A DNA stretch of 64,000 nucleotides, from contig JAFUSR010000004.1 in NCBI GenBank assembly GCA_017467585.1, positions 1 through 64,000 of the forward strand. The letters are read 5' to 3'. Positions 4,657-22,936 of this stretch are shown piece after piece. Every line of letters starts with the position of its first letter. The first letter of the stretch is position 1. The notes beneath the pieces are model-generated. The model worked only from the letters and a program-made list of their open reading frames with translations, did not search any database and was not told the origin of the DNA. This DNA comes from Clostridia bacterium (lineage in GTDB: Bacteria; Bacillota; Clostridia; Christensenellales; UBA1242). Made by a program: the position numbers and the translations under genes.

Positions 4657-5535
4657 ATGAAAAAATTAAGAAACGTGCTTTTGTCTTTATTGCTTGTGGT
4701 TGCGTCTGTTACACTTGTTGCATGCGGAGCAAAACAAGTGGCTGCCACCGAACAATTTGATTCAAAAGCAACAGTTAACACAGCTGGTGCATACACCACT
4801 TATCAAAAAACCGAATTTGACGAACTTGCAAGTCAAGAAGATTTTGATTCGTTGATGAAAACCGGCTATAAAATCACCTGCTCTATCAACATGGGTGGAA
4901 TGCCTGTTAAGATGACCATGATTGCAAAACTTGAGGAAGATGAGGTTGTTGAATTTGCATGCAAAATTGCTATGACAATTCCAAATGCAGAAACTGGTGC
5001 CACTTCTACAGAAACTATGAAGGTTTATTTAAAAGACAACAAGATTTATCTAAACGGAACAATTGAAGGACAAACAATAAAAACTTATTTTGACCTTGCA
5101 GATCTTGAAGAACAAGGCGCCGAAACAGATCCTGAAGACGAAGAGGCTTCAGAAGGATTTAACATTCAAGAAATGGTAGCTTCTATGAAACAACTAACAA
5201 CCATGGCACAAGCTTATGATGTTGAATGGTTGAAAAATGGAATTAACGCCCTTTACACCGCTGGCGAGCAAATCTCTGTTGACGACATTACAATTGAAGC
5301 CGTTAAAGAAGAAGATGAAATTTCTAAAATTCACGTTAAATATCAAGAGTCTTATGAAGCATATCTTCTTTTAGAAGATGGAAAAGTTACAGGATATAGT
5401 GCATCTATGTCTGCAAACCTTTTTGACGATTTTTCATTTGGCGTTTCAACAACAGTTGTTGTTTTTGACGAAGAAATTGAATATCCAGACTTTTCTGGCT
5501 ATCAAAACGGCAAAACATTAAACTCTGCTGAATAG
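4657..5535 (+). CDS. Lipoprotein of unknown function
   Basis: 292 residues starting with a lipoprotein signal (KK-LR, hydrophobic core, lipobox LVAC with Cys at 23). The mature part is acidic, and its alternation of short hydrophobic strands (VKMTMIAKLEEDEVVEFACKI, KVYLKDNKIYLNG) suggests an antiparallel beta sheet as in LolA/LppX-like or DUF6612-like lipoproteins that wrap lipid; this is a fold guess. AAAGGAGG precedes the ATG. It has its own promoter and terminator, so it acts alone. It is expected on the outer face of the membrane. Confidence 0.75.
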   Translation: MKKLRNVLLSLLLVVASVTLVACGAKQVAATEQFDSKATVNTAGAYTTYQKTEFDELASQEDFDSLMKTGYKITCSINMGGMPVKMTMIAKLEEDEVVEFACKIAMTIPNAETGATSTETMKVYLKDNKIYLNGTIEGQTIKTYFDLADLEEQGAETDPEDEEASEGFNIQEMVASMKQLTTMAQAYDVEWLKNGINALYTAGEQISVDDITIEAVKEEDEISKIHVKYQESYEAYLLLEDGKVTGYSASMSANLFDDFSFGVSTTVVVFDEEIEYPDFSGYQNGKTLNSAE

Positions 5536-5551
5536 TTCAACATAATCCACT

Positions 5552-5583
5552 AAAAACACTGGCAAATTAGCCAGTGTTTTTGT
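5552..5583 (+). terminator. Terminator after the lipoprotein gene
   Basis: Hairpin CACTGGC/GCCAGTG and T-run; its end abuts the -35 of the next gene. Confidence 0.9.
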
Positions 5584-5611
5584 TTGCCAAAAAAATATTT
5601 TGTGATATAAT
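5584..5611 (+). promoter_or_regulatory. Promoter giving a leaderless mRNA
   Basis: TTGCCA (5584-5589), 16-nt spacer, TATAAT (5606-5611). The ATG at 5619 begins 7 nt after the -10, about where transcription should start, and no ribosome site is present. Confidence 0.7.
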
Positions 5612-5618
5612 GTGTCGT

Positions 5619-6365
5619 ATGAAAAAATTAAGACTCGCAAACGTTTTGTCTCTTGTTTGCAACCTATCTATTGTTTATTTCACCATCGATGCCGTGTGGT
5701 ATTCTTTTCGCACAGACGTTATTCGCGACCCAAAGTGGTTTGGCTACACAGGAATTCACTCGCTGAGGTTTTTTACTGTTCTCTCTAACATTTTTGTTGC
5801 CATTATTGCAATTTTGTTTGTGATTAAAACAATAAAAAACTTAATTGAAGATAAATATGAATTCCCTCATTGGATGATTGTTTTAAAACAAATTGCAACC
5901 GCTGGTGTTGCCTTGACTTTTGCAACCGTTGTAACAATGCTTGCTCCAGCCTCTGCAATCACCGGAAAAGGCTATTTTTCAATGTTTGAACACAACAACT
6001 TGTTTATGCACCTTCTAACACCAATTCTCGCCATTGTGTCATTTGTGTTTTTCGAAAGAGAAAAACCACTGCGCATTAGAGAAAGCTTTTGGTTTTTGAT
6101 TCCTGTTATTATTTATTCAATCGTATACACAATAATGGTTGTGTTTATTGGTGAAGCAAATGGCGGCTGGAAAGATTTTTACAACTTCACCCTTCACGGA
6201 AAAATGTGGCTTGCACCGCTTGCCGCTGTTGGAATGTTGGGCTTTGCCTTTCTTGTTAGTTGGTTGCTTGTTTTCTGTCACAACAAGTGGCAAAAACGTC
6301 AAGAAAGAAAACTCGCAGAAGAAACTTCTGCTTTAAACGAACCCGACTCTGAAAACAATCAATAA
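5619..6365 (+). CDS. Multi-pass membrane protein, Pr6Pr-like
   Basis: 248 residues with about six transmembrane segments and a charged, hydrophilic C-terminal tail (KWQKRQERK then acidic). The segment RFFTVLSNIFVAI and the later membrane-embedded HNNLFMHLLTP fit the Pr6Pr family of six-helix proteins of unknown function. I start it at 5619 (MKKLRLANV) because the promoter leaves only 7 nt of leader; an in-frame upstream ATG at 5574 and one at 5610 lie inside the promoter. No partner gene is apparent. Confidence 0.7.
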   Translation: MKKLRLANVLSLVCNLSIVYFTIDAVWYSFRTDVIRDPKWFGYTGIHSLRFFTVLSNIFVAIIAILFVIKTIKNLIEDKYEFPHWMIVLKQIATAGVALTFATVVTMLAPASAITGKGYFSMFEHNNLFMHLLTPILAIVSFVFFEREKPLRIRESFWFLIPVIIYSIVYTIMVVFIGEANGGWKDFYNFTLHGKMWLAPLAAVGMLGFAFLVSWLLVFCHNKWQKRQERKLAEETSALNEPDSENNQ

Positions 6366-6377
6366 TTTTCAAACAAC

Positions 6378-6406
6378 AAAACTCCCAAACGGGAGTTTTG
6401 TTTTTT
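6378..6406. terminator. Bidirectional terminator between convergent genes
   Basis: AAAACTCCC/GGGAGTTTT with A-run on one side and T-run on the other serves the membrane protein (+) and the divIC operon (-). Confidence 0.85.
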
Positions 6407-6689
6407 ATGGTTGCTGAACAAATATTTTTTCGCCGTCGGTTGAAAGGCCATATTGTTCTCTTGCGGTTTGTTCAACATAGGTGCCGGTATTTCTAATTTC
6501 AATGCCCTGCTCCAGTTGTTGTTGTTGAATGGTTAAACTTGCAGACTGTCTGTCGAGGTCAGCAAGTTTTTTGTTGAGTGTTCCAATTTTAACAAGTTGA
6601 TAAGTTAAAATAATTGCAGCCACAACAATAAACACAGTAACGAGCACTGTTGAAAGTCTTACAATTCTTTTAATCTTTTGTGGTGTCAT
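6405..6689 (-). CDS. divIC: Septum formation initiator, DivIC/FtsB-like
   Basis: 94 residues: short cytoplasmic tail, one transmembrane helix (~12-32), a coiled coil with heptads (LNKKLADLDRQSASL...), and the C-terminal signature AREQYGLSTDGEKIFV. This matches DivIC/FtsB, a bitopic part of the divisome FtsL-DivIB complex. It is last in a yabP-yabQ-divIC order that is also found in Bacillus subtilis, which strongly supports the assignment. Confidence 0.9.
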   Translation of the reverse strand: MTPQKIKRIVRLSTVLVTVFIVVAAIILTYQLVKIGTLNKKLADLDRQSASLTIQQQQLEQGIEIRNTGTYVEQTAREQYGLSTDGEKIFVQQP

Positions 6690-6694
6690 AATTT

Positions 6695-7060
6695 CTACCT
6701 TAAGAGATGCTTGCCAAATTTTGTCTTTTTTATGCGGGCGAACATCTTTGTAAACACATTATATACCAAAAAATAAAACTTTGTAAAGAAAAAACCAATA
6801 CTAATTTGTTCAATAACAATGCCGAGAACCATTGCAACAATTAAATAAAAATAGACAATTCCTCCGGCAAGTTTGAGCAAAAAACCGCAAAAACATATGC
6901 CGCAGACGCAAAAATACACAAAATTTGCCGCGTTTGTAATGATAATATTATTTTTGAAAAGCAGCTTCAAAATTTTGCAACACTCATAACCTAACCCGCA
7001 AAACACACCCAAAAGAAAAAACTGCAAAAACAATCCGCCACCAGCAAGACTCGAAAACAT
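6695..7060 (-). CDS. yabQ: Spore cortex biosynthesis protein YabQ
   Basis: 121 residues, nearly all membrane: four hydrophobic segments with the N-terminal pattern LQFFLLGVFCGLGYECCKIL typical of YabQ. In B. subtilis YabQ sits in the outer spore membrane and is needed for cortex formation. It is shorter than the Bacillus protein, lacking a long C-terminal tail. The start codon overlaps the yabP stop by one base (7060), consistent with translational coupling. Confidence 0.85.
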   Translation of the reverse strand: MFSSLAGGGLFLQFFLLGVFCGLGYECCKILKLLFKNNIIITNAANFVYFCVCGICFCGFLLKLAGGIVYFYLIVAMVLGIVIEQISIGFFFTKFYFLVYNVFTKMFARIKKTKFGKHLLR

Positions 7061-7323
7061 TATTTAAACAACCTTTTGAAAAATCCTTTTCCACCGAGTT
7101 CGTTTAAAAATTCAATTTTTGAAACAGAACCAGACAAAAGCAACAGCTTTTCTTCTGGAGAAAGTTTTTCTACCTTGAGCCCTGCTCCAAAAATTTGAAC
7201 ATTTCCATCGACAAGTTTTATCACTGCCGCCTTGTCGGTTGCAGAGAGAACCTCAACCACGCCCGTAATCTTTGTTTGATTTTTGTTTTCAACAACAAGT
7301 GTTGTCAGATTTTTTTGTTCCAT
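7060..7323 (-). CDS. yabP: Sporulation protein YabP (YabP/YqfC family)
   Basis: 87 residues of predicted beta structure with the family pattern ITGVVEVLSATDKAAVIKL and GAGLKVEKLSPEEKLLLLSG. YabP is made in the mother cell and, with YabQ, is required for cortex assembly. It lies 37 nt after recD2 on the same strand and directly ahead of yabQ, the conserved sporulation order. Confidence 0.88.
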   Translation of the reverse strand: MEQKNLTTLVVENKNQTKITGVVEVLSATDKAAVIKLVDGNVQIFGAGLKVEKLSPEEKLLLLSGSVSKIEFLNELGGKGFFKRLFK

Positions 7324-7360
7324 ATATCTTACCTCAGTTTAATATATGCAACAGCGAGTT

Positions 7361-9571
7361 TTAAAATGAACGGCCAGTAATCAAAAAGTCTTTAAGCAGT
7401 GTTTTTCGCTCCACACTGAACTTGTTTTTAATCATATAATAAATGTTTCCGCTCTTTCCTATTAACACAACCATGTTTTTGGCTCTTGTTACTGCTGTGT
7501 ATAACAAATTTTTGTTGTATAGTTTTGGGTTTCCAGCAAGAATTGGAATTATTACAACCGGAAATTCACTGCCCTGGCTTTTGTGAATTGTTATGGCATA
7601 GGCAAGAGTTAGGTCTTCAATTTCAACAAGTGAATAGCCCGCTCTTCTGCCGTCATCGAAAGTGACATACATTGTGCTTGCAACAGTGTTGATTTGATCA
7701 ATATAGCCGATGTCCCCATTAAACACGCCCTGACCAAAAACAGTTATGTTGTTTTCTAATTTTGTCCACTCTTGCTCATAATTGTTCGACGTTTGCATAA
7801 CCTTGTCGCCCAGTCGGAAAGTCCTTTTTCCAACAACCAATTCTGGCTTGTCGGCGCTTGGTGGGTTTAACGCTGCCTGCAGTTTTATGTTTGCGTTATC
7901 AACGCCTGCAAGCCCTGACTTCATTGGGGCAATAACTTGAATATCTTTTGGCGAAATGTTTTTATATGCTGGAATTCGTTTTGAAACCATGTCTACAATT
8001 TCTTCAATAACAACTGCTGGTTCGAACTTGCTAGAATAGAAAAAGTCATCGCTCTTTTGAGCAAGGTCTGGCATTTCTCCATTATTGATTTTGTGAGCAT
8101 TTACAATAATTTGACTGTTTTCGCCCTGCCTGAAGATTTGGCTCAGACAAACATAAGGAATTTCGTCGCTAGAAAGCATGTCGGCAAGAACATTGCCTGC
8201 ACCGACACTTGGAAGTTGGTCTTTGTCGCCAACAAAAACAAGTTTTGTGCCAAGTTTTGTCGCCTTTAAAAGACTATACATTAAAAACACGTCGAGCATT
8301 GAAATTTCGTCAACGATAACAACATCTGTTTCAAGCGGGTTGTGTTCGTTTCTGGCAAAGGACAATTTGTTTTTTGAATAGCCCATTTCTAAAGCTCTAT
8401 GAATTGTGCTTGCCGGCATTTGGGTTTGTTCTTCGAGTCTCTTTGCAGCCCTGCCTGTTGGGGCCATAAGCATAGACTTTTTGCCCATGCTTTCCAAAAT
8501 GTATAACAGACACTTTATTATTGTTGTTTTTCCTGTTCCTGGGCCTCCGGTGATTATGCTAACTCCGCTTGCCACCGCGCAGCTTATGGCTTCTCGCTGA
8601 GTTTTGTGAAGAGTTATATTGTTTATTCGCTCATATTCTTGAATGAGCCTGTCTGTGTCGGCATGAGGTGTTGTATTGGTGTCTAAAAACAGTTTAAGTT
8701 TTGTGGCAATGTGTTTTTCCATTGTGTAGTTTTTGGTTGTGCAAACAGCCTCTTCTTGGTTATATTCAACCTTTTTGAGCAGGCCTTCAATGATGAGCAT
8801 GGTTACTTGCCTTTCTACATCTCCCATCATCTCTTCGTTAAAGCCCAAAATTCCACAAGTTCCCGCAACTAAGTCTTTGATTAAAACAACAGTCGAACCT
8901 TGATTTTCTGCAAGCTCACTCATGACATAGAGAACTCCGGCGCGAATTCGATATTCACTGTCTGGAGCAATGCCGAGTTTTGCAGCAATTTTATCAGCCG
9001 TTTTAAATCCAACACCATCGATATCTTCAATTAACCTATATGGATTTGTTTGCAAAACCTCAATTGTTTTATGCTTATATTGTTCATAAATTTTCACTGC
9101 AAGACCAATTGTAACGTCATAGGCCTGCAAAAATATAACCGCTTCTTGCATCTTTTTTATGTCTTTATATGCACTGCCAATTTCAAGAGCTTTGCGCCTG
9201 CTAATTCCCTTAACCTTTTCAAGTTCTAGTGGCGATTTGTCGATAATTTCTAGTGTTTTTTCTCCGAACATGGCAACAATGTTTCTGCTTGTGGCTTCGC
9301 CAACTCCAGAAATCAAACCGGACGCCAAATATTTTTCGATTGCTTCAACACTCGTTGGTTTTTTTATTTGAACTTTAGAAACTTCAAACTGCTCGCCATA
9401 GCGGTTATTTAGTTTAAACTCGCCGTCGAGTTCGAGAACCTCTGCTTCGCCAACAACAGGAAACTTGCCTGTGCATATCACAGGCTTTCCGCCAGACTCC
9501 AACTCAATTACGCAATAACCGGTTTCTAAATTTTTAAAGATTATTGACTTTATTGTTCCCGATAACTTCAT
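7361..9571 (-). CDS. recD2: ATP-dependent DNA helicase RecD2
   Basis: 736 residues, the usual RecD2 length. The N-terminal third has an OB-like region and tandem helix-hairpin-helix motifs (SGLISGVGEATSRNIV, DIDGVGFKTADKIA), followed by a superfamily 1B helicase core: Walker A GGPGTGKTT, Walker B VDEISMLD, motif III VGDKDQLPSVGAG, and motif VI YTAVTRAKN. RecD2 is a 5'-3' helicase acting in replication-fork maintenance and repair in bacteria lacking RecBC. It heads the run into yabP. No ribosome site stands out before the ATG at 9571. Confidence 0.95.
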   Translation of the reverse strand: MKLSGTIKSIIFKNLETGYCVIELESGGKPVICTGKFPVVGEAEVLELDGEFKLNNRYGEQFEVSKVQIKKPTSVEAIEKYLASGLISGVGEATSRNIVAMFGEKTLEIIDKSPLELEKVKGISRRKALEIGSAYKDIKKMQEAVIFLQAYDVTIGLAVKIYEQYKHKTIEVLQTNPYRLIEDIDGVGFKTADKIAAKLGIAPDSEYRIRAGVLYVMSELAENQGSTVVLIKDLVAGTCGILGFNEEMMGDVERQVTMLIIEGLLKKVEYNQEEAVCTTKNYTMEKHIATKLKLFLDTNTTPHADTDRLIQEYERINNITLHKTQREAISCAVASGVSIITGGPGTGKTTIIKCLLYILESMGKKSMLMAPTGRAAKRLEEQTQMPASTIHRALEMGYSKNKLSFARNEHNPLETDVVIVDEISMLDVFLMYSLLKATKLGTKLVFVGDKDQLPSVGAGNVLADMLSSDEIPYVCLSQIFRQGENSQIIVNAHKINNGEMPDLAQKSDDFFYSSKFEPAVVIEEIVDMVSKRIPAYKNISPKDIQVIAPMKSGLAGVDNANIKLQAALNPPSADKPELVVGKRTFRLGDKVMQTSNNYEQEWTKLENNITVFGQGVFNGDIGYIDQINTVASTMYVTFDDGRRAGYSLVEIEDLTLAYAITIHKSQGSEFPVVIIPILAGNPKLYNKNLLYTAVTRAKNMVVLIGKSGNIYYMIKNKFSVERKTLLKDFLITGRSF

Positions 9572-9654: not shown

Positions 9655-10506
9655 ATGAAAAAAATTTTTGTTTGTTTAACTTTGTTTGTGTCGCTTTTTA
9701 TGCTGGCCAACACAAAACCAATTTTTGTTTGCAAGACCTTGGCTCTTCAAACAGAAATTGAAAAAACTGGTGTTTCTGAAACAGCAAACAGCGAAAGGCA
9801 AGCCCTGCTTGCCATTGTTATTGACGACTTTGGCGGCTGGGAACGTGCGGGTGTTAACGAGCTTCTTTCTAGCGACATTGCAATAACATGCGCCATTATG
9901 CCGTTTGTTGAAAACTCGCAGGCAGACTACGATGCAGCGGTGGCGAGCAATAAGGAAGTTATTTTGCACATGCCAATGCAGGCCCATGTTGGTTTGCCTG
10001 AAAGTTGGTATGGCCCAACATATATCAAAAACTACGACTCTCCAGAAGTTGCAACCCAAAAGTTAGAAAAATGTTTAAAAACCATGCCAGAGGCCAAGGG
10101 TTTTAACATTCATATTGGCTCTGGGGCCAGCCGAAACAAAAACCTGATGATGGCAATGTATGACTACGCAAACAAAAACAATCTTTTGTTTTTAGACAGT
10201 CGCACCAATCTTGGCGACAAATGTGAAGAGGCCAGCCACCAAACAGGCAGCATTTACCTTGGTCGCGATGTGTTTCTTGAACCGCACAAAAATCGCTCTT
10301 TTGAGGGCGTAACAAGACGCTTGAAAGAAGCAACAACAATTGCAAAAGAAAAGGGATATGCCATTGCAATTGGTCATGTTGGAGCCGAAGGTGGAGCGAA
10401 CACAGCACGTGCAATTATAAATTTTGCCAAATCGCTCGACAGCGACGTTAAAATTGTTCCACTCTCTTCAATAAATAATTTTATCAAACAACATCAATAT
10501 AGATAG
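9655..10506 (+). CDS. Divergent polysaccharide deacetylase family protein (YibQ-like)
   Basis: 283 residues: signal peptide (MKKIFVCLTLFVSLFMLANT), then a divergent NodB-like domain of the PF04748 type, with LAIVIDDFGG at its start, the HMPMQ strand motif, and IAIGHVG near the end. The family is predicted to hydrolyse extracellular glycans, but activity is unproven. I start it at 9655; an in-frame ATG at 9607 would spoil the signal peptide. No ribosome site precedes 9655; TTGAAT (9619-9624), 18 nt, then a weak CATTCT ends 6 nt before the ATG, so a leaderless mRNA is possible. It is divergent from recD2. Confidence 0.82.
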   Translation: MKKIFVCLTLFVSLFMLANTKPIFVCKTLALQTEIEKTGVSETANSERQALLAIVIDDFGGWERAGVNELLSSDIAITCAIMPFVENSQADYDAAVASNKEVILHMPMQAHVGLPESWYGPTYIKNYDSPEVATQKLEKCLKTMPEAKGFNIHIGSGASRNKNLMMAMYDYANKNNLLFLDSRTNLGDKCEEASHQTGSIYLGRDVFLEPHKNRSFEGVTRRLKEATTIAKEKGYAIAIGHVGAEGGANTARAIINFAKSLDSDVKIVPLSSINNFIKQHQYR

Positions 10507-14114: not shown

Positions 14115-14693
14115 TTATTTGTTTTTGCAATAAATTCTGTAAACTAGTGGCAAATAAATTGCCGCTTTAACACTCAGTTTTTTGTTTTTGATAAAGTCTA
14201 AGACTTTTTCAATTTCAACTTTAAAAAACTTTATGTCTTCTTTCTCTTGCAAATTTTGCTTTCCAAACTTTTCAATTGTTGCCTCAAACACAACAGAACT
14301 TTCGTCTGTCATGCCCTCTGAACTGAAACAAGCATCTGTGAGCTTTGTGATTTTTGAAACTTTTTCTGCGCCAATTTCTTCTTTAAGTTCGCGAAGAGCC
14401 GACTCCTCTTCTGTTTCGCCCTCATCAACAAGCCCAGCAGGAAAACCCCACACATAATCGTTGATTGGATATCTAAATTCTTTGGTTAAAATTATTTTTG
14501 TCTTTTTGTTTTCAACAACATAAGGAATAATGACAACAGCGTCTGCTTTTGCACTGTTTGTTTTTGCAACCAAACTGTGCTCTGAATTTCGAGAAGACAT
14601 GTCCCAAACTGTGCCATTTTCGTAGTACAATCTGTATAGGTTTAAAAACTTGTTACTTGTTTGTTTTTCAATTTTTTTAATTTTCATTTTCAC
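14115..14693 (-). CDS. Nudix hydrolase, ADP-ribose pyrophosphatase-like
   Basis: 192 residues with a complete Nudix box (from GLVDEGE to REL-KEEIG), preceded by ITKEFRYPINDYVWGFPAG as in ADP-ribose pyrophosphatases. It should cleave a nucleoside diphosphate linked to another group, probably ADP-ribose or NADH-like compounds, using Mg2+. Its start overlaps the end of the amidohydrolase gene by 4 nt, so the two are translationally coupled. Confidence 0.9.
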   Translation of the reverse strand: MKMKIKKIEKQTSNKFLNLYRLYYENGTVWDMSSRNSEHSLVAKTNSAKADAVVIIPYVVENKKTKIILTKEFRYPINDYVWGFPAGLVDEGETEEESALRELKEEIGAEKVSKITKLTDACFSSEGMTDESSVVFEATIEKFGKQNLQEKEDIKFFKVEIEKVLDFIKNKKLSVKAAIYLPLVYRIYCKNK

Positions 14694-15404: not shown

Positions 15405-15878
15405 TTATTCTGCAACAATTTCGGCGTCTTTAACCCATTTTGCAAGGCTTTCTAAAGCTTTTTTGCATCCGTCCTTGCTAGCATAACCTTGTTCGCAGTT
15501 GCAAAGAAGTTCTCCATTTCTCGCAAACAGGCGATAACGATATTTTTCTGCTTTATCTAAATAAATTTCAAACTTAGGATTTGGCAATTCTTCGTGTTTT
15601 TTAAGTGTTAAGTCTTCAACGTGGGCTCCAACAGTTTTGCGAACACTCTCAATTCCGGCTTTGCAACCAGAAAGCGCTGCATATCCCGTTCCGCCACCAA
15701 CAACAAGTGTTTCGCCATTGCTAACAACCAAGCGGTAGTTATAAAACCCTTTTGCAGTTTTATAATAAACAAATTGTGCTTTTGGTTGTGTAACCTTTGC
15801 TGGGGCTTTTTCTTGTGCCTTTGGTTGTTTTTTTGCTGGGGCAGCCTTCTTTTGTGGTTTTGTTTGAATTTTTGCCAT
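15405..15878 (-). CDS. YegP-like protein with two DUF1508 repeats
   Basis: 157 residues. An N-terminal ~33 residues rich in Lys, Ala, Pro and Gln is followed by two YegP/DUF1508 repeats: FVYYKTAKGFYNYRLVVSNGE...TGYAALSGCKAGIESV and FEIYLDKAEKYRYRLFARNGE...QGYASKDGCKKALESL. Such repeats form a compact beta-beta-alpha dimer-like fold of unknown role. The basic leader could bind nucleic acid or the ribosome (inference). GGGAGG precedes the ATG. Confidence 0.85.
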   Translation of the reverse strand: MAKIQTKPQKKAAPAKKQPKAQEKAPAKVTQPKAQFVYYKTAKGFYNYRLVVSNGETLVVGGGTGYAALSGCKAGIESVRKTVGAHVEDLTLKKHEELPNPKFEIYLDKAEKYRYRLFARNGELLCNCEQGYASKDGCKKALESLAKWVKDAEIVAE

Positions 15879-16160: not shown

Positions 16161-16251
16161 GGAGAGATACTCAAGAGGCCAAAGAGGGCACCCTGCTAAG
16201 GTGTTAGTACGAGCAATCGTAGCGCGGGTTCAAATCCCGCTCTCTCCGCCA
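16161..16251 (+). tRNA. tRNA-Ser (GCU)
   Basis: Class II tRNA with a long variable arm (TACGAGCAATCGTA region), acceptor stem GGAGAGA/TCTCTCC, discriminator G and encoded CCA (16249-16251). The anticodon loop CTGCTAA gives GCU. Its 3' 25 bases plus the following A recur exactly at 17505-17530, marking it as the target of an insertion. Confidence 0.96.
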
Positions 16252-16252
16252 A
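16227..16252 (+). repeat. Direct repeat copy 1, tRNA-Ser 3' end (attL-like)
   Basis: 26 bases covering the T-loop, acceptor strand and CCA of tRNA-Ser, perfectly repeated at 17505-17530 at a distance of 1278 bp. A perfect tRNA 3'-end duplication flanking foreign DNA is the classical trace of site-specific integration. Confidence 0.85.
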
Positions 16253-16256
16253 GCGT

Positions 16257-16290
16257 AACCTAAATCGAACATCGGTTTAGGTTTTTTGTT
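16257..16290 (+). terminator. Terminator after tRNA-Ser
   Basis: AACCTAAA/TTTAGGTT hairpin then six T's. Confidence 0.85.
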
Positions 16291-16302
16291 TTAATCAAAC
16301 AA

Positions 16303-16325
16303 AAAGCCGGAACAATTCCGGCTTT
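16303..16325. terminator. Bidirectional terminator, end of the membrane-protein gene
   Basis: AAAGCCGGAA/TTCCGGCTTT with A's on the left and T's on the right, 3 nt from the stop codon of the minus-strand gene. Confidence 0.85.
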
Positions 16326-16327
16326 TA

Positions 16328-17431
16328 TTAATGCTTAAATATAAATAATCCTGTTTCGAGATACAAAATAATAACTGTAAACACAAACAGCACAACCATA
16401 ATTATATCCCAAAGGCTTGCCCTGGTCTTTCTTGTATACGACAACAGCAAAATAAGTGGTGCAGCAAATCCTAGATAAAAATTAAAACCAATGCCGTAAA
16501 ACAAAAACCAAGGTGAAACATAAATAAGGCCAAAGTCAATAGCACAAACAACAATCATGATAACCGCAGAAATTACACTAATTTCAAGAGAACTTCTGTT
16601 GCTTTTTGCGTAAGTGTCATATTCTTCTGGCGTTCCACCCCATTTTGCAAACAGAAATTGTCTTAATTTGATTATAAGTGCAACACCAAAGAAAATTGCA
16701 TATATTGTTATTGATCTGCATGGCATAATTGCAAGAGCTGCAACTGGCAATTCCACAATACCAGTGTTATTGAGTCCATACAAAACCGTAGACCCAACAG
16801 CAAACAAAATAGGAATAATACACATGAACCTGAAAATTAAAATTGCACCATCTTTTTTTATCTTTTTTGGTGTATAAAACAAAAAGAAATAAAATAATGA
16901 AAACAACGACAAATCTACAAACACGTTGTAGTTAATAACTTTGCCAAACACTTTTTTGGCAACCATATCAGCAAAGTCATATGCATCGGCAGTGCTTTCG
17001 CTAACAACTTTGCCAATGCCCATAAGATATCTGTAAAACACAAGAATAACAAGCAAATAAATAAGAATAGCTATTGCAGAATAAATAATGAGCATTTTTT
17101 TGATTTTTTCTCTGCTAGTCATGATAATGCAAAAGTTTGCTGCCAAAAACATAGGCAACGCAAAAATGGACAAAACTTCAAGCACATCTGCAACATCTTT
17201 TACACCGGCTGGAACTTCCACCATTTTGTAAACCAAGTTTAAGCACACACAAACCTGTGCAAAAAACATCAAAACAAAGCCCAAAATTTTCATGGTTCTG
17301 CCAGAGAATATTCCACGATATTTCAAATCTGGCAAACCCATTAGTTTATCTATTCTTTGTCTGTTTTTGTTTGGAACAACAATTTGTGCTTGTTGTTCGT
17401 TTGTTTCAACAATGTTTTCTTTTGTTTCCAT
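16328..17431 (-). CDS. Multi-pass membrane protein, sole gene of a tRNA-Ser insertion
   Basis: 367 residues: a hydrophilic N-terminus of ~45 residues (Glu/Gln-rich) and about nine transmembrane helices. No transporter signature or catalytic motif is recognised. It is the only gene between the two perfect copies of the tRNA-Ser 3' end (16227 and 17505). Its ATG lies 6 nt after TATAAT without a ribosome site, so its mRNA is probably leaderless. Base composition is like the host backbone, which argues for long residence. Confidence 0.72.
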   Translation of the reverse strand: METKENIVETNEQQAQIVVPNKNRQRIDKLMGLPDLKYRGIFSGRTMKILGFVLMFFAQVCVCLNLVYKMVEVPAGVKDVADVLEVLSIFALPMFLAANFCIIMTSREKIKKMLIIYSAIAILIYLLVILVFYRYLMGIGKVVSESTADAYDFADMVAKKVFGKVINYNVFVDLSLFSLFYFFLFYTPKKIKKDGAILIFRFMCIIPILFAVGSTVLYGLNNTGIVELPVAALAIMPCRSITIYAIFFGVALIIKLRQFLFAKWGGTPEEYDTYAKSNRSSLEISVISAVIMIVVCAIDFGLIYVSPWFLFYGIGFNFYLGFAAPLILLLSYTRKTRASLWDIIMVVLFVFTVIILYLETGLFIFKH

Positions 17432-17437
17432 ATTTTT

Positions 17438-17466
17438 ATTATACCAAATTGTAAAACGTTTAGCAA
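17438..17466 (-). promoter_or_regulatory. Promoter giving a leaderless mRNA (minus strand)
   Basis: Minus strand: TTGCTA (17466-17461), 17-nt spacer, TATAAT (17443-17438), 6 nt, ATG (17431). Confidence 0.7.
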
Positions 17467-17504
17467 GTTATGGGTTTTATTTTTAATTAGTTTGCTTTTT
17501 TATA

Positions 17505-17530
17505 GGTTCAAATCCCGCTCTCTCCGCCAA
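17505..17530 (+). repeat. Direct repeat copy 2, displaced tRNA-Ser 3' end (attR-like)
   Basis: Exact 26-base copy of 16227-16252 not attached to any tRNA body. It is followed at once by its own hairpin terminator, as if this had been the original tRNA 3' end and terminator before the insertion. Confidence 0.85.
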
Positions 17531-17532
17531 AA

Positions 17533-17566
17533 GGAACTGCATTCTAATATGCGGTTCTTTTATTTC
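17533..17566 (+). terminator. Hairpin after the displaced tRNA 3' end
   Basis: GAACTGCAT/ATGCGGTTC (one G-T pair) and T-rich tail; probably the ancestral tRNA-Ser terminator. Confidence 0.75.
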
Positions 17567-17678
17567 TGTCAAAATGGTGTTGCAGGTTTTGTCATACCGA
17601 CTAAAAAAGTTAAACAAAAAACACCACTTAACTATCTAAAGAAAAAATATATCCAGTATCTTTTACAAATAAAAAAAT

Positions 17679-17705
17679 GGTTTAGCGATTGCTAAGCCTT
17701 TTTTA
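17679..17705. terminator. Terminator at the end of the TfoX-like gene
   Basis: GGTTTAGC/GCTAAGCC hairpin with T-run on the plus strand and A-run on the left; it closes the minus-strand pair. Confidence 0.75.
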
Positions 17706-17993
17706 TTTTAAATCTTCACAAGTAGTTTTTATAAGATTATTTAAATAATCAACATCATCTAAATTTTCAACCATATACATTGTTTTTGCACTCTCATAGG
17801 GTATTTCTTCAGCGAGTGAAAAGCCTTTATTTGAGTGTGTTTTTTTAATTAAAAATCTATCATCATATATACCGCCAAACAAGATACCATTATGATAAAG
17901 TAGAAATTCTCCCATCATTGCTTTGCAAGTAATATTATCAAGTTCTCTCAATTGTTCTAATATAAAATCTTTAAATTGGTTTGATGATGACAT
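17703..17993 (-). CDS. TfoX N-terminal domain protein
   Basis: 96 residues matching the stand-alone TfoX N-terminal domain: F-KDFILEQLREL, CKAMMGEFLLYHNGILFGGIYDDRFLIK, and a C-terminal helix. The fold is shared with TfoX/Sxy competence regulators, but isolated domains like this are common in small mobile modules and have no fixed function. It starts 13 nt after the GNAT gene on the same strand with AAGAAGG as ribosome site, so the two form a pair. Confidence 0.88.
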   Translation of the reverse strand: MSSSNQFKDFILEQLRELDNITCKAMMGEFLLYHNGILFGGIYDDRFLIKKTHSNKGFSLAEEIPYESAKTMYMVENLDDVDYLNNLIKTTCEDLK

Positions 17994-18006
17994 AAATTAC
18001 CTTCTT

Positions 18007-18750
18007 TTATTTTATAAGTTTTTCAAAAGCATTTGCATTTAATATTGTGTTAGATATAAACTTTCCTTTATAAAAATTAGCCCAATTATTGAATATACAA
18101 GGAGCATTTTTTGCTTTCTCTAGGGTGTCAATTTTTACAAAATTCAATTTAATATTTTTATTGTTTGCATAATTTGACAATTCTTTAACTTCATACTCAA
18201 CATAAGGACATTCGTTACTATAATATATTGTAAAATCTTTATTCTCAATCTGCATTTTTCTAGCAGTGTCACTAAATTTAGGTGTTGGGCTGTTATCAAA
18301 TTGTAAAGCAAGCAATTCATAATCAGCTATTGTATCAACAACTTTGAATCCAAAGTGTTCAAAAAATGTTTTTTCTCCCAAAAATGGTTTTTTCTTTTTT
18401 GCTACAATATTGCAAAGGCCACTCATCTTCTTTGATTTAGCATCGTTTATTGCATATTCAAGTAATTCTTTCGCAATACCTTTTCCTTTAAAACTACCAG
18501 CAACCCATAAGCAATAAATATATTCATAGTTTTTACCTAAAACAGGAGCCCAAGCAGTTTCTATTGGCTCATACTCAATAAATATCTTTCCACGAGCATT
18601 TAATTTGCGAAAGATATGACCGCCTTTTAGTTTGTCTTTAATCCATTCCTTTTTACAATTTACCCCTTCTTGATGTTTTGGGTCTCCTATAGCACAACAA
18701 ATATGCTCATCTTCAATATTGTCTAATGTTAGATTTACAAAATCGTTCAT
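18007..18750 (-). CDS. yoaP: GNAT acetyltransferase with YoaP C-terminal domain
   Basis: 247 residues. An N-terminal GNAT fold with the acetyl-CoA loop GSFKGKGIAKELL (~residues 86-98) is followed by a thioredoxin-like YoaP domain: FTIYYSNECPYVEYEVKEL then APCIFNNWANFYKGKFISN. The acceptor substrate is unknown. Clear own promoter (TATAAT about 30 nt upstream) and AAGGAG ribosome site, in contrast to the leaderless genes around. AT-rich and in the same orientation as the other module genes. Confidence 0.88.
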   Translation of the reverse strand: MNDFVNLTLDNIEDEHICCAIGDPKHQEGVNCKKEWIKDKLKGGHIFRKLNARGKIFIEYEPIETAWAPVLGKNYEYIYCLWVAGSFKGKGIAKELLEYAINDAKSKKMSGLCNIVAKKKKPFLGEKTFFEHFGFKVVDTIADYELLALQFDNSPTPKFSDTARKMQIENKDFTIYYSNECPYVEYEVKELSNYANNKNIKLNFVKIDTLEKAKNAPCIFNNWANFYKGKFISNTILNANAFEKLIK

Positions 18751-18840
18751 AATTTTCTCCTTAAAATAACAATTTGATTATAACATAAAATTTTTATTTT
18801 GTATAAATGTTTACCGAATTCATTAAATAAAATTTATTTT

Positions 18841-18874
18841 TTACCGTTAGAATAGAATCCCTACTGTCCCGCCA
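18841..18874 (+). repeat. tRNA-3'-end-like repeat, degenerate copy A
   Basis: Begins TTACCGTTAGAATAGAATCC and ends TGTCCCGCCA. It shares the TTACCG start, TAGAAT core and CCCGCCA end with the sequence at 19821-19854, and CCGCCA plus a following hairpin with the tRNA-Ser-derived copy at 17505. It lies at the 3' side of the next minus-strand module, just as the other copies do. Confidence 0.55.
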
Positions 18875-18877
18875 CAA

Positions 18878-19039
18878 GTGAACTGTACGCACACTCGTGA
18901 AAATGAGAAGTGTGTATTTTTCTTTTTACACGAATGTTTTGGTATCATTATTCCATTTGATAAACCCAATGTTGACAATGCTGGTTGGGAAAATTGGAAA
19001 ACTAAAAAACGAGATGAATATGGAAACTTTTGTAAATAA
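18878..19039 (+). pseudogene. Possible remnant reading frame inside the CAT module
   Basis: A plus-strand frame open from the tRNA-like repeat through to TAA at 19037-19039 reads as a plausible protein C-terminus (PFDKPNVDNAGWENWKTKKR, then DEYGNFCK). It lacks a convincing start and overlaps a hairpin, so it is either a gene remnant carried by the module or chance. Confidence 0.25.
18889..18926 (+). terminator. Hairpin after degenerate copy A
   Basis: CACACT/AGTGTG stem with a large loop, then a T-rich run; equivalent in position to the hairpins after the other copies. Confidence 0.55.
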
Positions 19040-19051
19040 ATATAAAAAATA

Positions 19052-19079
19052 AAGAGAGAATGTGTTAATATTCTCTCTT
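19052..19079. terminator. Terminator of the CatA-like gene
   Basis: AAGAGAGAAT/ATTCTCTCTT hairpin 18 nt past the stop of the minus-strand gene. Confidence 0.7.
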
Positions 19080-19096
19080 CGTTAGTTTGTAGATTC

Positions 19097-19744
19097 TTAT
19101 TCTATAAAATTCTCAATTTCTTTTTGTAGCAAACGAAAAACATTTGCAACTAAATATCCATCAGCAATTGCATGATTTAATCTTACAGTAACAGGCATCA
19201 TGAAATGTCCATTTTCTTCTCTATATTTTCCCCAATTTATAATTGGAGCAAAAAACAAATGTCCATCAGGCAACTCAATGTTTAATGAATCATATGAAAA
19301 CCATGGGATATATGATGCATCAAACCAGTTTGGGTGATTTTGCATGTCAAGGCCATATTCCCTCGTTTCTTTTGCTCTTTCTATATCTTTCAATGCATTT
19401 TTATAAAAAGTTGGATAATCATAATAAAACTTCGTATATACAGGAGTGCAAGTTTCTGTATCATCATGAAAAACATATTGAGTTGGATTGATCACATCAT
19501 AACAAATCAGTTTATCTTCTTTATAGAGATATCCCATTTTGTAATCATCTCTTGAGTTAAGAACTTTTGACAGAATGTATAAAAAGTTTATATAAAACTT
19601 TGTTCCAGTTTTCTTTGAATATAAAACAAGATCAGTAACATTAATTCTTGCTGTTATTGAAGTTGAACATTTACAATCTTTAGAAAAATGTTCAAAGACT
19701 CCTTTTCTGTAGTATTTGTCTTTGTCTATAACTTTATAATTCAT
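19097..19744 (-). CDS. CatA-like O-acetyltransferase
   Basis: 215 residues, the usual length of the chloramphenicol acetyltransferase family. Near the C-terminus NHAIADGYLVANVF supplies the catalytic His and the HxxxDG signature (the first of the two His in typical CAT is Asn here); PWFSYDSLNIELPD is also family-like. It would use acetyl-CoA; whether chloramphenicol is a substrate cannot be said, since many such homologues act on other compounds. Own promoter (TATAAT) and GGAG ribosome site upstream. It is the third module of the tRNA-Ser chain. Confidence 0.85.
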   Translation of the reverse strand: MNYKVIDKDKYYRKGVFEHFSKDCKCSTSITARINVTDLVLYSKKTGTKFYINFLYILSKVLNSRDDYKMGYLYKEDKLICYDVINPTQYVFHDDTETCTPVYTKFYYDYPTFYKNALKDIERAKETREYGLDMQNHPNWFDASYIPWFSYDSLNIELPDGHLFFAPIINWGKYREENGHFMMPVTVRLNHAIADGYLVANVFRLLQKEIENFIE

Positions 19745-19820
19745 AGTTTTTCTCCAATGTAATTACATTATAGCACAATATTGTTTATATTGTGTAAAAA
19801 AGATCTAACTTTTAAAAAAT

Positions 19821-19854
19821 TTTACCGAGAGATAGAATTCTAATGCTCCCGCCA
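19821..19854 (+). repeat. tRNA-3'-end-like repeat, degenerate copy B
   Basis: Begins TTTACCGAGAGATAGAATTC and ends GCTCCCGCCAA. Same architecture as copy A (18841-18874) and followed immediately by a 12-bp perfect hairpin. Confidence 0.55.
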
Positions 19855-19887
19855 ATCAAACTTAAATTAAGCTGATTAAGTTTGATT
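19854..19887 (+). terminator. Hairpin after degenerate copy B
   Basis: 12-bp perfect stem AATCAAACTTAA/TTAAGTTTGATT. The following T tract is interrupted, so it may be a recombination-site structure as much as a terminator. Confidence 0.6.
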
Positions 19888-19999: not shown

Positions 20000-22729
20000 T
20001 TAAACTTTGTTTTTATCAGATTCAGCGAGTCTTGCCGCAGCCTCTTCTTTTGTTTTAAACACGTTGAATTTTAGTGCTCTGCCTATTCTGTTTCTGTGAT
20101 TAATAACAATATACCATCTCTTTCTCTTTGCAAGCAAATAGATTGGCTTTATTTCTCCATAAACAAGTGTATATCTCTTAAAACACTTGCGTGCTACAAG
20201 CAAATATATTAAACAGAACAAGATTAGTGCTCCTAAGAAAGAACCAATGGTTATTAATGTTACTTTAACATTGAAGTTATGAACAAGTGTCTTATATTCT
20301 GCCTCTGATTCTGTCAATGTCTCATAGTTTGCAATCACTGTTTTTTCTTCTTCGGTCAAATCATCAAAGAATGCTCTTGCATCATCAATTAGCGCTTTAG
20401 ATTCTTTTGTTCTTTCAACTGTGCCTATCTCTTCAATTTTTTGTGTTACAACTTCTGTTTTTGCTTTGCTGAACACTGTTTGTAAATCTTCAATTTGTTC
20501 TGCAATTTGTGCACTTGTTACGTTTGCTTTGTCAATAAAGTCATCTTGAGAAACAGCTCTTTCTGCCATCATGTCTGCATCAATATCTGCATAACCTTCT
20601 GCAATCTTTCCGTGATATGTGTCTACTTTTTCAATAAGTGCCAAAAGTTCTGCTTTGTCTACTTGAGCTATTGTCACTGTAAAGCTTGCTTCTGCAATTG
20701 CGTTGTAGTTGTCATTTCCAAGAGCTTTATAGAAAACTGTGTATGTTGTAGCAAAACGACCTTGTGGAATTGCCGAGTTATATTCTGTTGCAAATTCTTC
20801 TTCTGTGTCTGGGTTTGTGTATGTAATTTTGTAAACAATATCTCCAGAATCATTGTATCTAAGTTCACCAGCAGTAATCAGTGCAAGGTCTTCATTATTA
20901 TAAATAAGTCCTTCAACTGCTGCAGGAAGAGTTGCATACTCCGCATTTGTTTTTGTGATAACAACTGTTTGGCTATTGCGATATGTTGTCCAACCTGTTT
21001 TTGTAACTTCAAAGTAAACTGTGTATGTTCCAACATTTGTATAAGTTGGAGCTTCTATAAGGTTATATGTTCCTTCATTTGTGCCATACATAACTGTTGC
21101 ATCTGTTGGGTTTGTTGGAACAACTGAAATTGTGTGTGCAGTTCTGTCATATTCTGCTTCATAGCCATCAAACGCAACAACCATGTTTTGTGTAAAGTAA
21201 GCATAAAGTGTTGGCGCACTATCTTTATCCCATGCTTTGCAACCATGACCAGCATTGTCTATATATTTATTTCCCGCACCATTTTCTTGGTCATAATATC
21301 CATCAAATGTGTATCCGTCAAGCGTTGGGACAGACACATTAGGAAGCATTGCATCATATGTTGCTGTAACTCCCGCGTCTCCGCCTTGACCTTCTCCATT
21401 ATTGAATGTTAGGTCATAAGTTTTTGCTGTCCAATTTGCCGTGTATGTTCTGTTTCCAATTGAACCTTTTGCAACGCTTACGCTTTGATTGGTGTCACCA
21501 GAAAGTCCTGTTCCACTCCAACCCTTGAAGGTGTAACCTGTTCGAGTTGGGTTTGAAATTGTAAATGCGTTGGTTGTCACATTATATGAACTTGGATGTG
21601 TGGTTCCATGTGTTCCACCATTTAAGTTATATGTGATTGAATATGTTATCAAATCTGCACTGATTGTGCCAAAATCTACAGTTGTTGTGCCGACTGTTTG
21701 TGAGGAAACACGATAAATTGCGTTTTCTGTGTCTTCTGTTCCAGAAACAAGTGTCCAGTTTGATTTGTGTTTGTATCCTTTTGCAAGTTTTGCAAACGCA
21801 TAAACTGTTGTGCCACTATTAAACTTGCTTCCACTTGCGCTTCCACTTGTTGCATTTTGATTTGATGAAAGGTAAACTGAACTTATCCCAGTTCCAGCAG
21901 TTACATTAACTGCTTGTTCTGCAATTTCCCATTGTGCTGTAAGATTGAGTGAGGATTTAGCTGTCGGTGTATCAAACTTGCTAAGTGTTGGTGCACCATT
22001 CGCATTATAATATTGAGTTGTTCCATTTGCGTCATAATATCCCAAAAATTTGTAGCCGGACTTTGTTGGGATATTTATAGAAGAGTAAGGAAAATAATAA
22101 TTAACAGACGCATTATCACTTCCTCCAGAACCACCATCCTTATTAAAATTTATTGTTACTGGTTTACCATAATAATAATTAACATTCGTGAAAATATTAA
22201 TGGTGTTTGCATTATTGTTTTTAATAACATAAGTGACAACACTTGAAGAAGTGTCAAGTAGTTCTGCTTGATAAATTTCAGAGGAAGTGCTATCACCAGA
22301 AGCTCTTGCTATATAATTTGTTGTCGAAGAATTTTTGCTGCCGTGTGTTATTGACAATTCAATGGTCGCTTGTTCACTTCCATACACCCTTAAGCCAGCA
22401 TATACTAGATATTTCACTGTAGTGCTATCGTTGTTTGTGATTGTTATTGATGCTCCAGCCGACAAAGAAAAAAATCTAGTATCTGATACTGTTTTTTCTG
22501 AGCCTCCACTCCACGACCAATTATCTTTTGTTCCGCTTGTAGGACTATCTGCTATGCTGGTAAATAATAAACTTGCAGATTGTGTTTTATCGGTATCATA
22601 ATCGCTTATTGCCGCATAAGCTGTGTTCGCGTTTGATGGAATGCCTAGAAAAGCAGCACCAGCCATAAGCACAAGAGCTATTGCAATCAAGCCACTAATC
22701 AGCCAATTTTTTCTTTTTGTTTTTTTCAT
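20000..22729 (-). CDS. Surface protein with InlB-type repeats and C-terminal anchor
   Basis: 909 residues. Signal peptide with a long basic start (KKTKRKNW) and cleavage near AYA-A (~residue 38); a beta-rich N-terminal domain; two or three InlB B-type repeats (NGGTHGTTHPSSYNV..., TGYTFKGWSGTG, NWTAKTY); MBG-like beta domains (THAISVVPTNPTDATVMYG style); a helical stretch rich in Glu; a transmembrane helix (VTLITIGSFLGALILFCLIY); and a basic ~59-residue cytoplasmic tail resembling short DUF2188-type folds (weak). No LPXTG motif. It is probably displayed on the cell and may bind host or glycan ligands. Start at 22729 is set by GGGAGG; an in-frame ATG at 22795 has no ribosome site. Confidence 0.85.
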   Translation of the reverse strand: MKKTKRKNWLISGLIAIALVLMAGAAFLGIPSNANTAYAAISDYDTDKTQSASLLFTSIADSPTSGTKDNWSWSGGSEKTVSDTRFFSLSAGASITITNNDSTTVKYLVYAGLRVYGSEQATIELSITHGSKNSSTTNYIARASGDSTSSEIYQAELLDTSSSVVTYVIKNNNANTINIFTNVNYYYGKPVTINFNKDGGSGGSDNASVNYYFPYSSINIPTKSGYKFLGYYDANGTTQYYNANGAPTLSKFDTPTAKSSLNLTAQWEIAEQAVNVTAGTGISSVYLSSNQNATSGSASGSKFNSGTTVYAFAKLAKGYKHKSNWTLVSGTEDTENAIYRVSSQTVGTTTVDFGTISADLITYSITYNLNGGTHGTTHPSSYNVTTNAFTISNPTRTGYTFKGWSGTGLSGDTNQSVSVAKGSIGNRTYTANWTAKTYDLTFNNGEGQGGDAGVTATYDAMLPNVSVPTLDGYTFDGYYDQENGAGNKYIDNAGHGCKAWDKDSAPTLYAYFTQNMVVAFDGYEAEYDRTAHTISVVPTNPTDATVMYGTNEGTYNLIEAPTYTNVGTYTVYFEVTKTGWTTYRNSQTVVITKTNAEYATLPAAVEGLIYNNEDLALITAGELRYNDSGDIVYKITYTNPDTEEEFATEYNSAIPQGRFATTYTVFYKALGNDNYNAIAEASFTVTIAQVDKAELLALIEKVDTYHGKIAEGYADIDADMMAERAVSQDDFIDKANVTSAQIAEQIEDLQTVFSKAKTEVVTQKIEEIGTVERTKESKALIDDARAFFDDLTEEEKTVIANYETLTESEAEYKTLVHNFNVKVTLITIGSFLGALILFCLIYLLVARKCFKRYTLVYGEIKPIYLLAKRKRWYIVINHRNRIGRALKFNVFKTKEEAAARLAESDKNKV

Positions 22730-22936
22730 TTTTTCCTCCCATTTTTTGTATAAAGAATTGATTATGAATATAGTTGCGCACATCAAGTATATCACATAAG
22801 TTTTGGTAATGTATCATTTTTTGATTAAGTTTTCAATTTAATTCAATATGCTTGTTTTTTTGTAATAATTGCATTTAACTATTTACTTTGAAGCTGTTTT
22901 TGTGATACAATTTGGTTGAAAAGGATAACTTTTTAT

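What the first reader, a model, noticed from the sequence alone, without database searches (positions are those of the whole stretch)
16161..19887. Chain of small gene modules behind tRNA-Ser, each with a tRNA-3'-end-like site
After tRNA-Ser(GCU) come four tRNA-end-like sites (16227, 17505, 18841, 19821), spaced about 1.0-1.3 kb. Each is followed by a hairpin and then by minus-strand gene(s) with their own promoter and terminator: a membrane protein; TfoX-like plus GNAT/YoaP; CatA-like. Each gene therefore ends next to a site, as in integron cassettes (gene plus 3' recombination site), and the cargo (acetyltransferases, TfoX domain) is typical of cassettes. No integrase is in view. This could be a tRNA-anchored, recombinase-in-trans cassette system, or successive insertions of small satellites.
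Basis: partly seen in the sequence, partly recalled or inferred. Interest (0 to 1): 0.72.

Follow-up and report, generated by a model that had tools for sequence, protein, structure and literature searches.

The report
Single-gene serine-integrase modules at tRNA-Ser
In a group of very small gut bacteria, the ends of serine-tRNA genes collect rows of tiny one- or two-gene DNA modules that carry the landing sites of a phage-type serine integrase but no integrase of their own; two such modules are also found, cut at exactly the same points, in another genus.

Summary
The sites are real, but they are not integron sites. tRNA-Ser(GCU) is followed by three modules (1278, 1345 and 980 bp). The dividing sites centre on Y[CC]GCCA. 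In comparative data from about 300 related genomes they have the anatomy of serine-integrase attachment sites: inverted arms about the central CC, and an outer motif that also occurs in the tRNA T-arm, 5 bp nearer the centre, which is the published attP/attB offset. Large serine recombinase (LSR) genes of prophage-like elements end at the same core beside tRNA-Ser genes. One LSR element lies in this genome; another, inovirus-like and 97% identical over 6.8 kb in two genera, has the arms of window module 2. The CAT module (96%) and a NUDIX module (88%) recur in another genus, core to core, with different neighbours. Module left ends also carry the LSR's cut-off C-terminal tail, because attP lies inside the LSR gene and integration splits it. 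Most likely these are miniature, non-autonomous relatives of LSR elements, moved in trans and serially inserted at tRNA-Ser, partly decayed. A tyrosine/attC cassette system is not supported. Recombination itself was not shown. The B-type right end of module 1 and the asymmetric arms of module 3 are unexplained.

The parts
16161..16251 (+). tRNA-Ser(GCU); its 3' part is the attB half-site (T-arm = outer motif, CC of TCCGCCA = crossover)
   Evidence: motif shift
16227..16275 (+). site 1, B.P' (attL-like): tRNA half plus left arm of module 1 (AACCTAAATCGAAC), which is also a terminator hairpin
   Evidence: (model R1 E 1.7e-5)
16252..17529 (.). module 1 (1278 bp)
   Evidence: repeat spacing 1278; gene absent from this locus in G001
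16328..17431 (-). membrane-type protein, 367 aa, no Pfam family; homologue (48%) in the contig that carries the CAT module in G007
17505..17553 (+). site 2: exact 25-nt tRNA 3' copy (B-type half) plus P' arm GGAACTGCATTCTAAT
   Evidence: R1 E 2.3e-4
17530..18874 (.). module 2 (1345 bp); its two arms match those of the inovirus-like LSR element of G048/G268
17531..17638 (+). remnant of the LSR C-terminal tail (KELHSNMRFFYFCQNGVAGFVIPTKKV...)
17703..17993 (-). TfoX N-terminal-domain protein, 96 aa
18007..18750 (-). GNAT acetyltransferase + YoaP-like protein, 247 aa
18846..18898 (+). site 3, P.P': P arm GTTAGAATAGAATC (module 2), core CCCGCCA 18868-18874, P' arm of module 3
   Evidence: R1 E 3.5e-10 (this site was in the training set)
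18875..19854 (.). module 3 (980 bp); found core to core in G007 (another genus, another tRNA-Ser, different neighbours)
18917..19039 (+). remnant of the LSR tail, second type (FFFLHECFGIIIPFDKPNVDNAGWENWKTKKRDEYGNFCK*)
19097..19744 (-). chloramphenicol-acetyltransferase-like protein, 215 aa (PF00302 E 2.7e-42)
19821..19878 (+). site 4: right (P) arm of module 3, core CCCGCCA 19848-19854, then a perfect hairpin
   Evidence: R1 E 2.5e-3 (in training set); arms of module 3 not symmetric
15405..15878 (-). DUF1508 protein: upstream flank shared with G001
20000..22795 (-). Listeria-Bacteroides-repeat surface protein: downstream flank shared with G001

Best explanation
The modules are miniature, non-autonomous relatives of mobile elements that integrate with a large serine recombinase (LSR) into the 3' end of tRNA-Ser genes. 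Each module, when circular, would carry an attP: a P arm at its right end, the core Y[CC]GCCA, and a P' arm at its left end. The tRNA-Ser 3' end is attB, with the T-arm as outer motif. Recombination at the central CC keeps the tRNA intact and puts the module's P' arm, which also forms an intrinsic terminator, right behind it; the next insertion at the tRNA pushes the earlier module downstream. The modules encode no LSR, so the enzyme must act in trans, supplied by prophage or island elements that carry it. In at least one clade the attP core lies inside the LSR gene itself, so integration cuts off the enzyme's ~55-residue C-terminal tail; remnants of that tail mark many module left ends. SHOWN by sequence: site anatomy, LSR genes ending at the core beside tRNA-Ser, core-to-core sharing of modules, the split LSR frame. 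INFERRED: that the LSR catalyses these insertions, that it acts in trans, that some modules still move, and the circular intermediate. Several sites look decayed, so much of the array may be inactive.
For: (1) Arms: with the P-arm profile, the proximal motif fits the tRNA half best at shift 0 (4.04) and the distal motif at shift 5 (5.65; next 2.37). Element by element, shift 5 gives 6 of 9 and 7 of 8 matches, and no other shift exceeds 4 and 3. PMC3783163 reports the zinc-ribbon motif 5 bp nearer the centre in attB than in attP. (2) LSR genes (Resolvase + Recombinase + Zn_ribbon) end at the core or beside tRNA-Ser of GCU, UGA and GGA type. (3) This genome, contig C4: tRNA-Ser(UGA), MFS module, tRNA-Ser(UGA), 6.8-kb LSR element, NUDIX module; the LSR element's P and P' share a perfect 9-bp motif at 15-23 from the centre. 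(4) Module 2 has ATTCTAA at 17-23 on both arms, like the G048 LSR element, and a homologous left end. (5) CAT module 772/802 identical to G007 over its right part and ending at CCGCCA on both sides; NUDIX module 88.5% over 651 bp, core to core. (6) Ends of cross-genome alignments at a core in both genomes: 30/257, against 58/7400 random. (7) LSR element 97% identical over 6.8 kb in two genera, ending at the core. (8) Tail frame restored on joining P and P'; in 309 genomes no LSR copy with a YCCGCCA core was seen to keep the tail: bodies match up to the junction, tails from it.
Against: No recombination was observed, and only one genome per species is available, so gain or loss of a single module within a species was not seen. 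Module 1 has a B-type right end (25 nt of tRNA), which one attB x attP event does not give. Module 3, one of the two modules with proof of transfer, has asymmetric arms (5 of 21 matches). Palindromic runs of 7 also occur at 0.27% of window positions. The LSR matching module 2 was found in G048/G268, not in this genome. Repeated insertion at the tRNA would use a B.P' hybrid as target, which well-studied serine integrases do not use readily without a directionality factor. Curated sites were chosen by eye from YCCGCCA hits.
Confidence: 0.74

Rival explanations
1. Graveyard by in-situ decay: full-length LSR prophages and islands inserted one after another at tRNA-Ser, and each later lost most of its genes by deletion, leaving an end or a cargo gene. 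The small units never moved as such.
For: LSR tail remnants at left ends; a 69-aa LSR C-terminal remnant ends at the core of a G009 module; mutated core (CAGCCA) in the C4 NUDIX module; G001 keeps only an arm and a tail before its next gene.
Against: The CAT and NUDIX modules occur as the same small units, bounded by the cores on both sides, in two genera, with different neighbours and, for CAT, at different tRNA-Ser genes.
Confidence: 0.17
2. Integron-like cassette array with attC-type hairpin sites and a tyrosine integrase in trans.
For: Size, cargo (acetyltransferases, NUDIX, ASCH) and array layout resemble cassettes; hairpins at every site.
Against: Sites have a double-strand palindromic attP layout with a 5-bp-shifted motif in the tRNA; the hairpins look like terminators, many with T-runs; recombinase genes abutting the sites are serine recombinases; two of the three tyrosine integrases lie by tRNA-Leu genes; gene orientation is mixed.
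Confidence: 0.03
3. No mobile system: decayed duplications of the tRNA end plus ordinary terminators.
For: Each site is followed by a terminator-like hairpin; sites 3 and 4 match the tRNA only in ~7 nt.
Against: Recurrence in tens of genomes, strand bias and distance dependence, exact inter-genus unit sharing and LSR genes at the same core.
Confidence: 0.03

Closest known systems
Staphylococcal cassette chromosome (SCC) elements and ccr-less pseudo-SCC arrays at rlmH
   Same: Large serine recombinase, insertion in the 3' end of a housekeeping gene that stays intact, tandem arrays in which some members lack the recombinase (general knowledge; SCC-like LSR islands also in PMC10581047).
   Different: Target is tRNA-Ser of several anticodons, not rlmH; modules are 0.3-1.3 kb with one or two genes, not tens of kb; sites and hosts unrelated.
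CIMEs and accretion of recombinase-less islands with ICEs and IMEs (Streptococcus)
   Same: Elements flanked by att sites but without recombinase genes, stacked in tandem with autonomous relatives that share the sites (general knowledge; reviewed in PMC5704250).
   Different: Here the units are single genes, the recombinase is a serine integrase, and in one clade attP runs through its gene.
Phage serine integrases with attP/attB (A118, phiC31, Bxb1)
   Same: Domain order of the enzyme; attP/attB layout with outer motif shifted 5 bp (PMC3783163).
   Different: attB is a tRNA T-arm; in the G048/C4 clade attP lies inside the integrase gene, so integration replaces the C-terminal tail.
SSV-type archaeal integrases (split on integration)
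   Same: The integrase gene is split by integration because attP lies within it.
   Different: Those are tyrosine recombinases (from general knowledge); here it is a serine recombinase.
Integron gene cassettes
   Same: Small mobile gene-plus-site units in arrays, with overlapping kinds of cargo.
   Different: No IntI, serine-type double-strand sites, tRNA instead of attI.

Membership tests
Serine-integrase (LSR) integrative element | attP with inverted half-sites around a central dinucleotide | tested here: met
   C4 LSR element: perfect 9-bp run at 15-23 in both arms; G048 element and module 2: 7-bp run at 17-23. Not met for module 3.
Serine-integrase (LSR) integrative element | attB motif shifted 5 bp inwards relative to attP | tested here: met
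   Shift 5 is the clear maximum in the pooled profile and in two single elements
Serine-integrase (LSR) integrative element | LSR gene inside the element | tested here: not met
   The three window modules encode no recombinase: they can only be non-autonomous relatives; LSRs present elsewhere in the genome
Serine-integrase (LSR) integrative element | recombination catalysed by the LSR | not testable with these tools
   needs a biochemical or in vivo assay
CIME / satellite mobilised in trans | shares att sites with an autonomous element | tested here: met
   Module 2 against G048/G268 LSR element, both ends
CIME / satellite mobilised in trans | moves as a unit | tested here: met
   CAT and NUDIX modules core to core in two genera; past transfer inferred, present activity unknown
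SCC element | insertion at rlmH with ccr genes | tested here: not met
   Target is tRNA-Ser
Integron | IntI-type tyrosine integrase with attI next to the array | tested here: not met
   Array starts at a tRNA gene; no such integrase in the window or in the arrays fetched
Integron | attC folded-strand site | tested here: inconclusive
   Hairpins are present but look like terminators overlapping the P' arm; no attC search tool was run
Inovirus-like prophage (proposed helper) | Zot/pI-like ATPase and rolling-circle Rep in the LSR element | tested here: met
   G048 element: Zot E 4.6e-4 (just under the Pfam cut-off), REP_ORF2-G2P 2.6e-9; homologues in G268 and G086. Not so for the C4 element of this genome.

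The most novel reading that the evidence does not exclude
A serine-recombinase counterpart of the integron: single-gene satellites trafficked between genera by the LSRs (and perhaps the secretion machinery) of filamentous-type phages, landing in arrays at tRNA-Ser genes, with an integrase whose own C-terminal tail is exchanged by every integration because attP lies inside its gene, which could act as a built-in direction switch.
Probability: 0.3. Interest if true: 0.86.

Novelty: new variant of a known kind. Interest (0 to 1): 0.64.

Why it matters
It shows how genomes of about 1 Mb can acquire single useful genes without integrons or plasmids, gives serine integrases that use tRNA T-arms as a natural landing site (of interest for genome engineering), and makes testable whether a serine integrase can be switched by cutting its own C-terminal tail on integration.

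Tried and rejected
(a) Integron/attC reading: dropped after the palindromic arms, the 5-bp shift and the LSR neighbours. (b) Tyrosine integrases of this genome as the enzyme: two lie by tRNA-Leu genes; the third is of the ~350-370-aa type found in nearly all relatives. A tyrosine integrase island does occupy tRNA-Ser(GCU) in one relative (L052), so the locus is shared between enzyme classes. (c) The peptide VRxxSLxxRQ at module right ends: at first read as an LSR remnant, but it is what the arm motif GTTMGAAT encodes anyway, so it is not used as evidence. (d) Alignment A1 contained by mistake one hybrid sequence I had typed; it was discarded, and model R1 was built from A2, which holds only natural sites. 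(e) Search of viral contigs for the P-arm pattern: none; LSR relatives there only 29-35% identical; no match of LSR end plus tail in the phage collection. (g) A PADLOC scan of cargo failed on wrong coordinates and was not repeated. (h) Paper searches found no description of such arrays; the library lacks most subscription journals.
Full report
OBSERVATION. The window lies in a 0.97-Mb genome of 4 contigs; the related records that could be named are uncultured Clostridia MAGs, several from rumen or caecum of herbivores. tRNA-Ser(GCU) is at 16161-16251. An exact 25-nt copy of its 3' end lies at 17505-17529 and nowhere else in the genome at up to 3 mismatches. The sites near 18841 and 19821 share with the tRNA only the last ~7 nt but resemble each other. 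Each site is followed by a hairpin. Folding of the 40 nt behind 43 internal sites and 36 tRNA-Ser loci gives mean z of -3.0 and -4.3, against -0.25 for control CCGCCA. Genes: a 367-aa membrane-type protein without Pfam match, TfoX_N, GNAT+YoaP, CAT.

RELATIVES. The same tRNA was located in 88 of 118 genomes of the family. Just downstream of it the + strand is enriched in YCCGCCA (23 against 4 on the other strand in the first 3 kb; 19 against 26 farther out). Arrays of such sites with one or two small genes between them occur in several genera: six sites behind tRNA-Ser(GCU) in G108 (L109), four in G083 (L049), and others in G061, G267, G297, G086, G277 and G007. Cargo includes NUDIX, GNAT, ASCH, histidine phosphatase and DUF1848 proteins, and a methylase-containing module. 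In G001, the only same-genus genome with a match, the flanks DUF1508 and the Listeria-Bacteroides-repeat protein are conserved but none of the three module genes is there; behind the tRNA comes directly the left end that in the window follows site 3.

UNITS. A search of 309 family genomes with the window modules gave matches that start and stop at the cores. The CAT module of G007 (another genus) is 772/802 identical over its right part and 330/381 over an alignment that includes the unrelated flank on the left; identity begins at CCGCCA and ends at CCGCCA, with different sequence outside on both sides. There the module sits in the array of a tRNA-Ser(UGA), behind a NUDIX module. That NUDIX module recurs on contig C4 of the window's own genome, 88.5% identical over 651 bp, again from core to core, although the own copy has a mutated right core (CAGCCA). 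So two modules that are neighbours in G007 are separate in this genome. Over all loci, and leaving out alignments through tRNA genes, 30 of 257 alignment ends fall on a core in both genomes, against 58 of 7400 random points.

ENZYME. In G086 a large serine recombinase (LSR: Resolvase, Recombinase, zinc ribbon) ends 182 bp before the first site of an array. In other genomes LSR genes end at or across the core, or face the 3' end of tRNA-Ser with GCU, UGA or GGA anticodon. The window's genome has two LSRs. One, on C4, lies in a 6.8-kb element between a tRNA-Ser(UGA) and the NUDIX module; an MFS-transporter module precedes it behind another tRNA-Ser(UGA). The other (C2, 462 kb) has an inovirus-type Rep gene beside it and no tRNA-Ser.

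SITE ANATOMY. Read outwards from the two C of Y[CC]GCCA, the two arms of an element carry the same motif. C4 LSR element: AAATGCGAA at positions 15-23 on both arms. G048 LSR element and window module 2: ATTCTAA at 17-23 on both arms. The tRNA-Ser 3' half carries the matching motif (T-arm) 5 bp nearer the centre. In the pooled profile the distal block scores 5.65 at shift 5 and at most 2.37 elsewhere, while the proximal block is best at shift 0; for the single elements shift 5 gives 6 of 9 and 7 of 8 matches against at most 4 and 3 at other shifts. This is the attP/attB relation described for serine integrases, with the zinc-ribbon motif at bp 16-24 in attP and 11-19 in attB (PMC3783163). A sequence model of the sites (R1) finds the four window sites and a group on C4 in this genome, and sites in most relatives tested. 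Window sites 3 and 4 were in its training set, so their scores are not independent.

SPLIT INTEGRASE. The LSR element of G048 and G268 is 97% identical over 6.8 kb in two genera and ends at the core. It lies between tRNA-Ser(UGA) or (GCU) and the LSR 3' end, about 23-30 kb, and encodes Zot-like, rolling-circle Rep and LexA-like proteins, hence inovirus-like. Its attP core lies inside the LSR reading frame: joining the sequence up to the core to the sequence behind the tRNA restores a 567-aa protein with the tail ...EEPYSNIRFFYFCIKGVAGFVVPTQKVQPKQSLHYLYLDRDENGNWIK..., while the integrated genes end at 513 and 522 aa. The C4 LSR behaves likewise (523 against 505 aa). Homologous tails stand 32-54 nt behind the core at many module left ends, including window sites 2 and 3, with differences at codon positions 1/2/3 of 0.40/0.33/0.47, as expected for former coding sequence. 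In 309 genomes, LSR bodies match the joined query up to the junction and tails match from it; one LSR with another core (L219, 557 aa) seems to keep a tail in frame.

INTERPRETATION. The best-supported reading is that window modules are miniature relatives of LSR elements, inserted one after another at attB = tRNA-Ser, with the enzyme in trans. Module 2 carries both ends of a G048-type element around TfoX and GNAT/YoaP genes. The hairpin is best read as the P' arm doubling as a new terminator for the tRNA. Steps shown: site anatomy, association with LSR genes, unit sharing, split frame. Steps inferred: catalysis, trans action, circular intermediate, helper identity (inovirus-like for G048; unclear for C4).

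UNEXPLAINED. Module 1, and a 298-bp module in G064, have B-type right ends (tRNA copy), which a simple attB x attP event does not give. Module 3 has asymmetric arms although it is the module best shown to have moved. How repeated insertion at a B.P' hybrid is allowed is open.

KNOWN SYSTEMS. SCC elements and their recombinase-less tandem members, and CIMEs, are the nearest kinds; integrons resemble it only in layout. I found no description of such arrays or of an LSR gene split by its own attP in the paper library, which is incomplete.

Noticed in passing
L166 (G000:C4:20500-40000), minus strand: Second array in this genome: two tRNA-Ser(UGA) genes, an MFS-transporter module, a 6.8-kb LSR element with DUF6291 and HTH genes, and a NUDIX module with mutated core.
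   Followed up: partly
L147 (G000:C2:456000-469000), 4926-7479: LSR directly behind a rolling-circle Rep gene like that of inoviruses, next to a Mg-chelatase/ComM-like gene; not at a tRNA-Ser.
   Followed up: no
window 16227-17529 and L054 (G064) +298: Modules whose right end is a tRNA 3' copy (B-type) instead of a P arm; origin unexplained.
   Followed up: partly
L052 (G025), downstream of tRNA-Ser(GCU): The same tRNA is followed by a tyrosine integrase gene (reverse strand, next to the tRNA) and a stretch of about 7.5 kb that ends at a 21/25 copy of the tRNA end: both recombinase classes may use this locus.
   Followed up: no
L042, L062, L064 (G037, G099, G110): Near-identical left end of an element behind tRNA-Ser(GCU) in three genera; in G099 it carries methylase/restriction-type genes.
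   Followed up: no
L056 (G000:C2:321001-340000): Two tyrosine integrases within 6 kb, with tRNA-Leu genes (in this locus at 9902-9987 and 14518-14606).
   Followed up: no
L169 (G310), L175 (G316): Model R1 also hits behind tRNA-Ser(GCU) in other families of the order, so the system may reach beyond this family.
   Followed up: no
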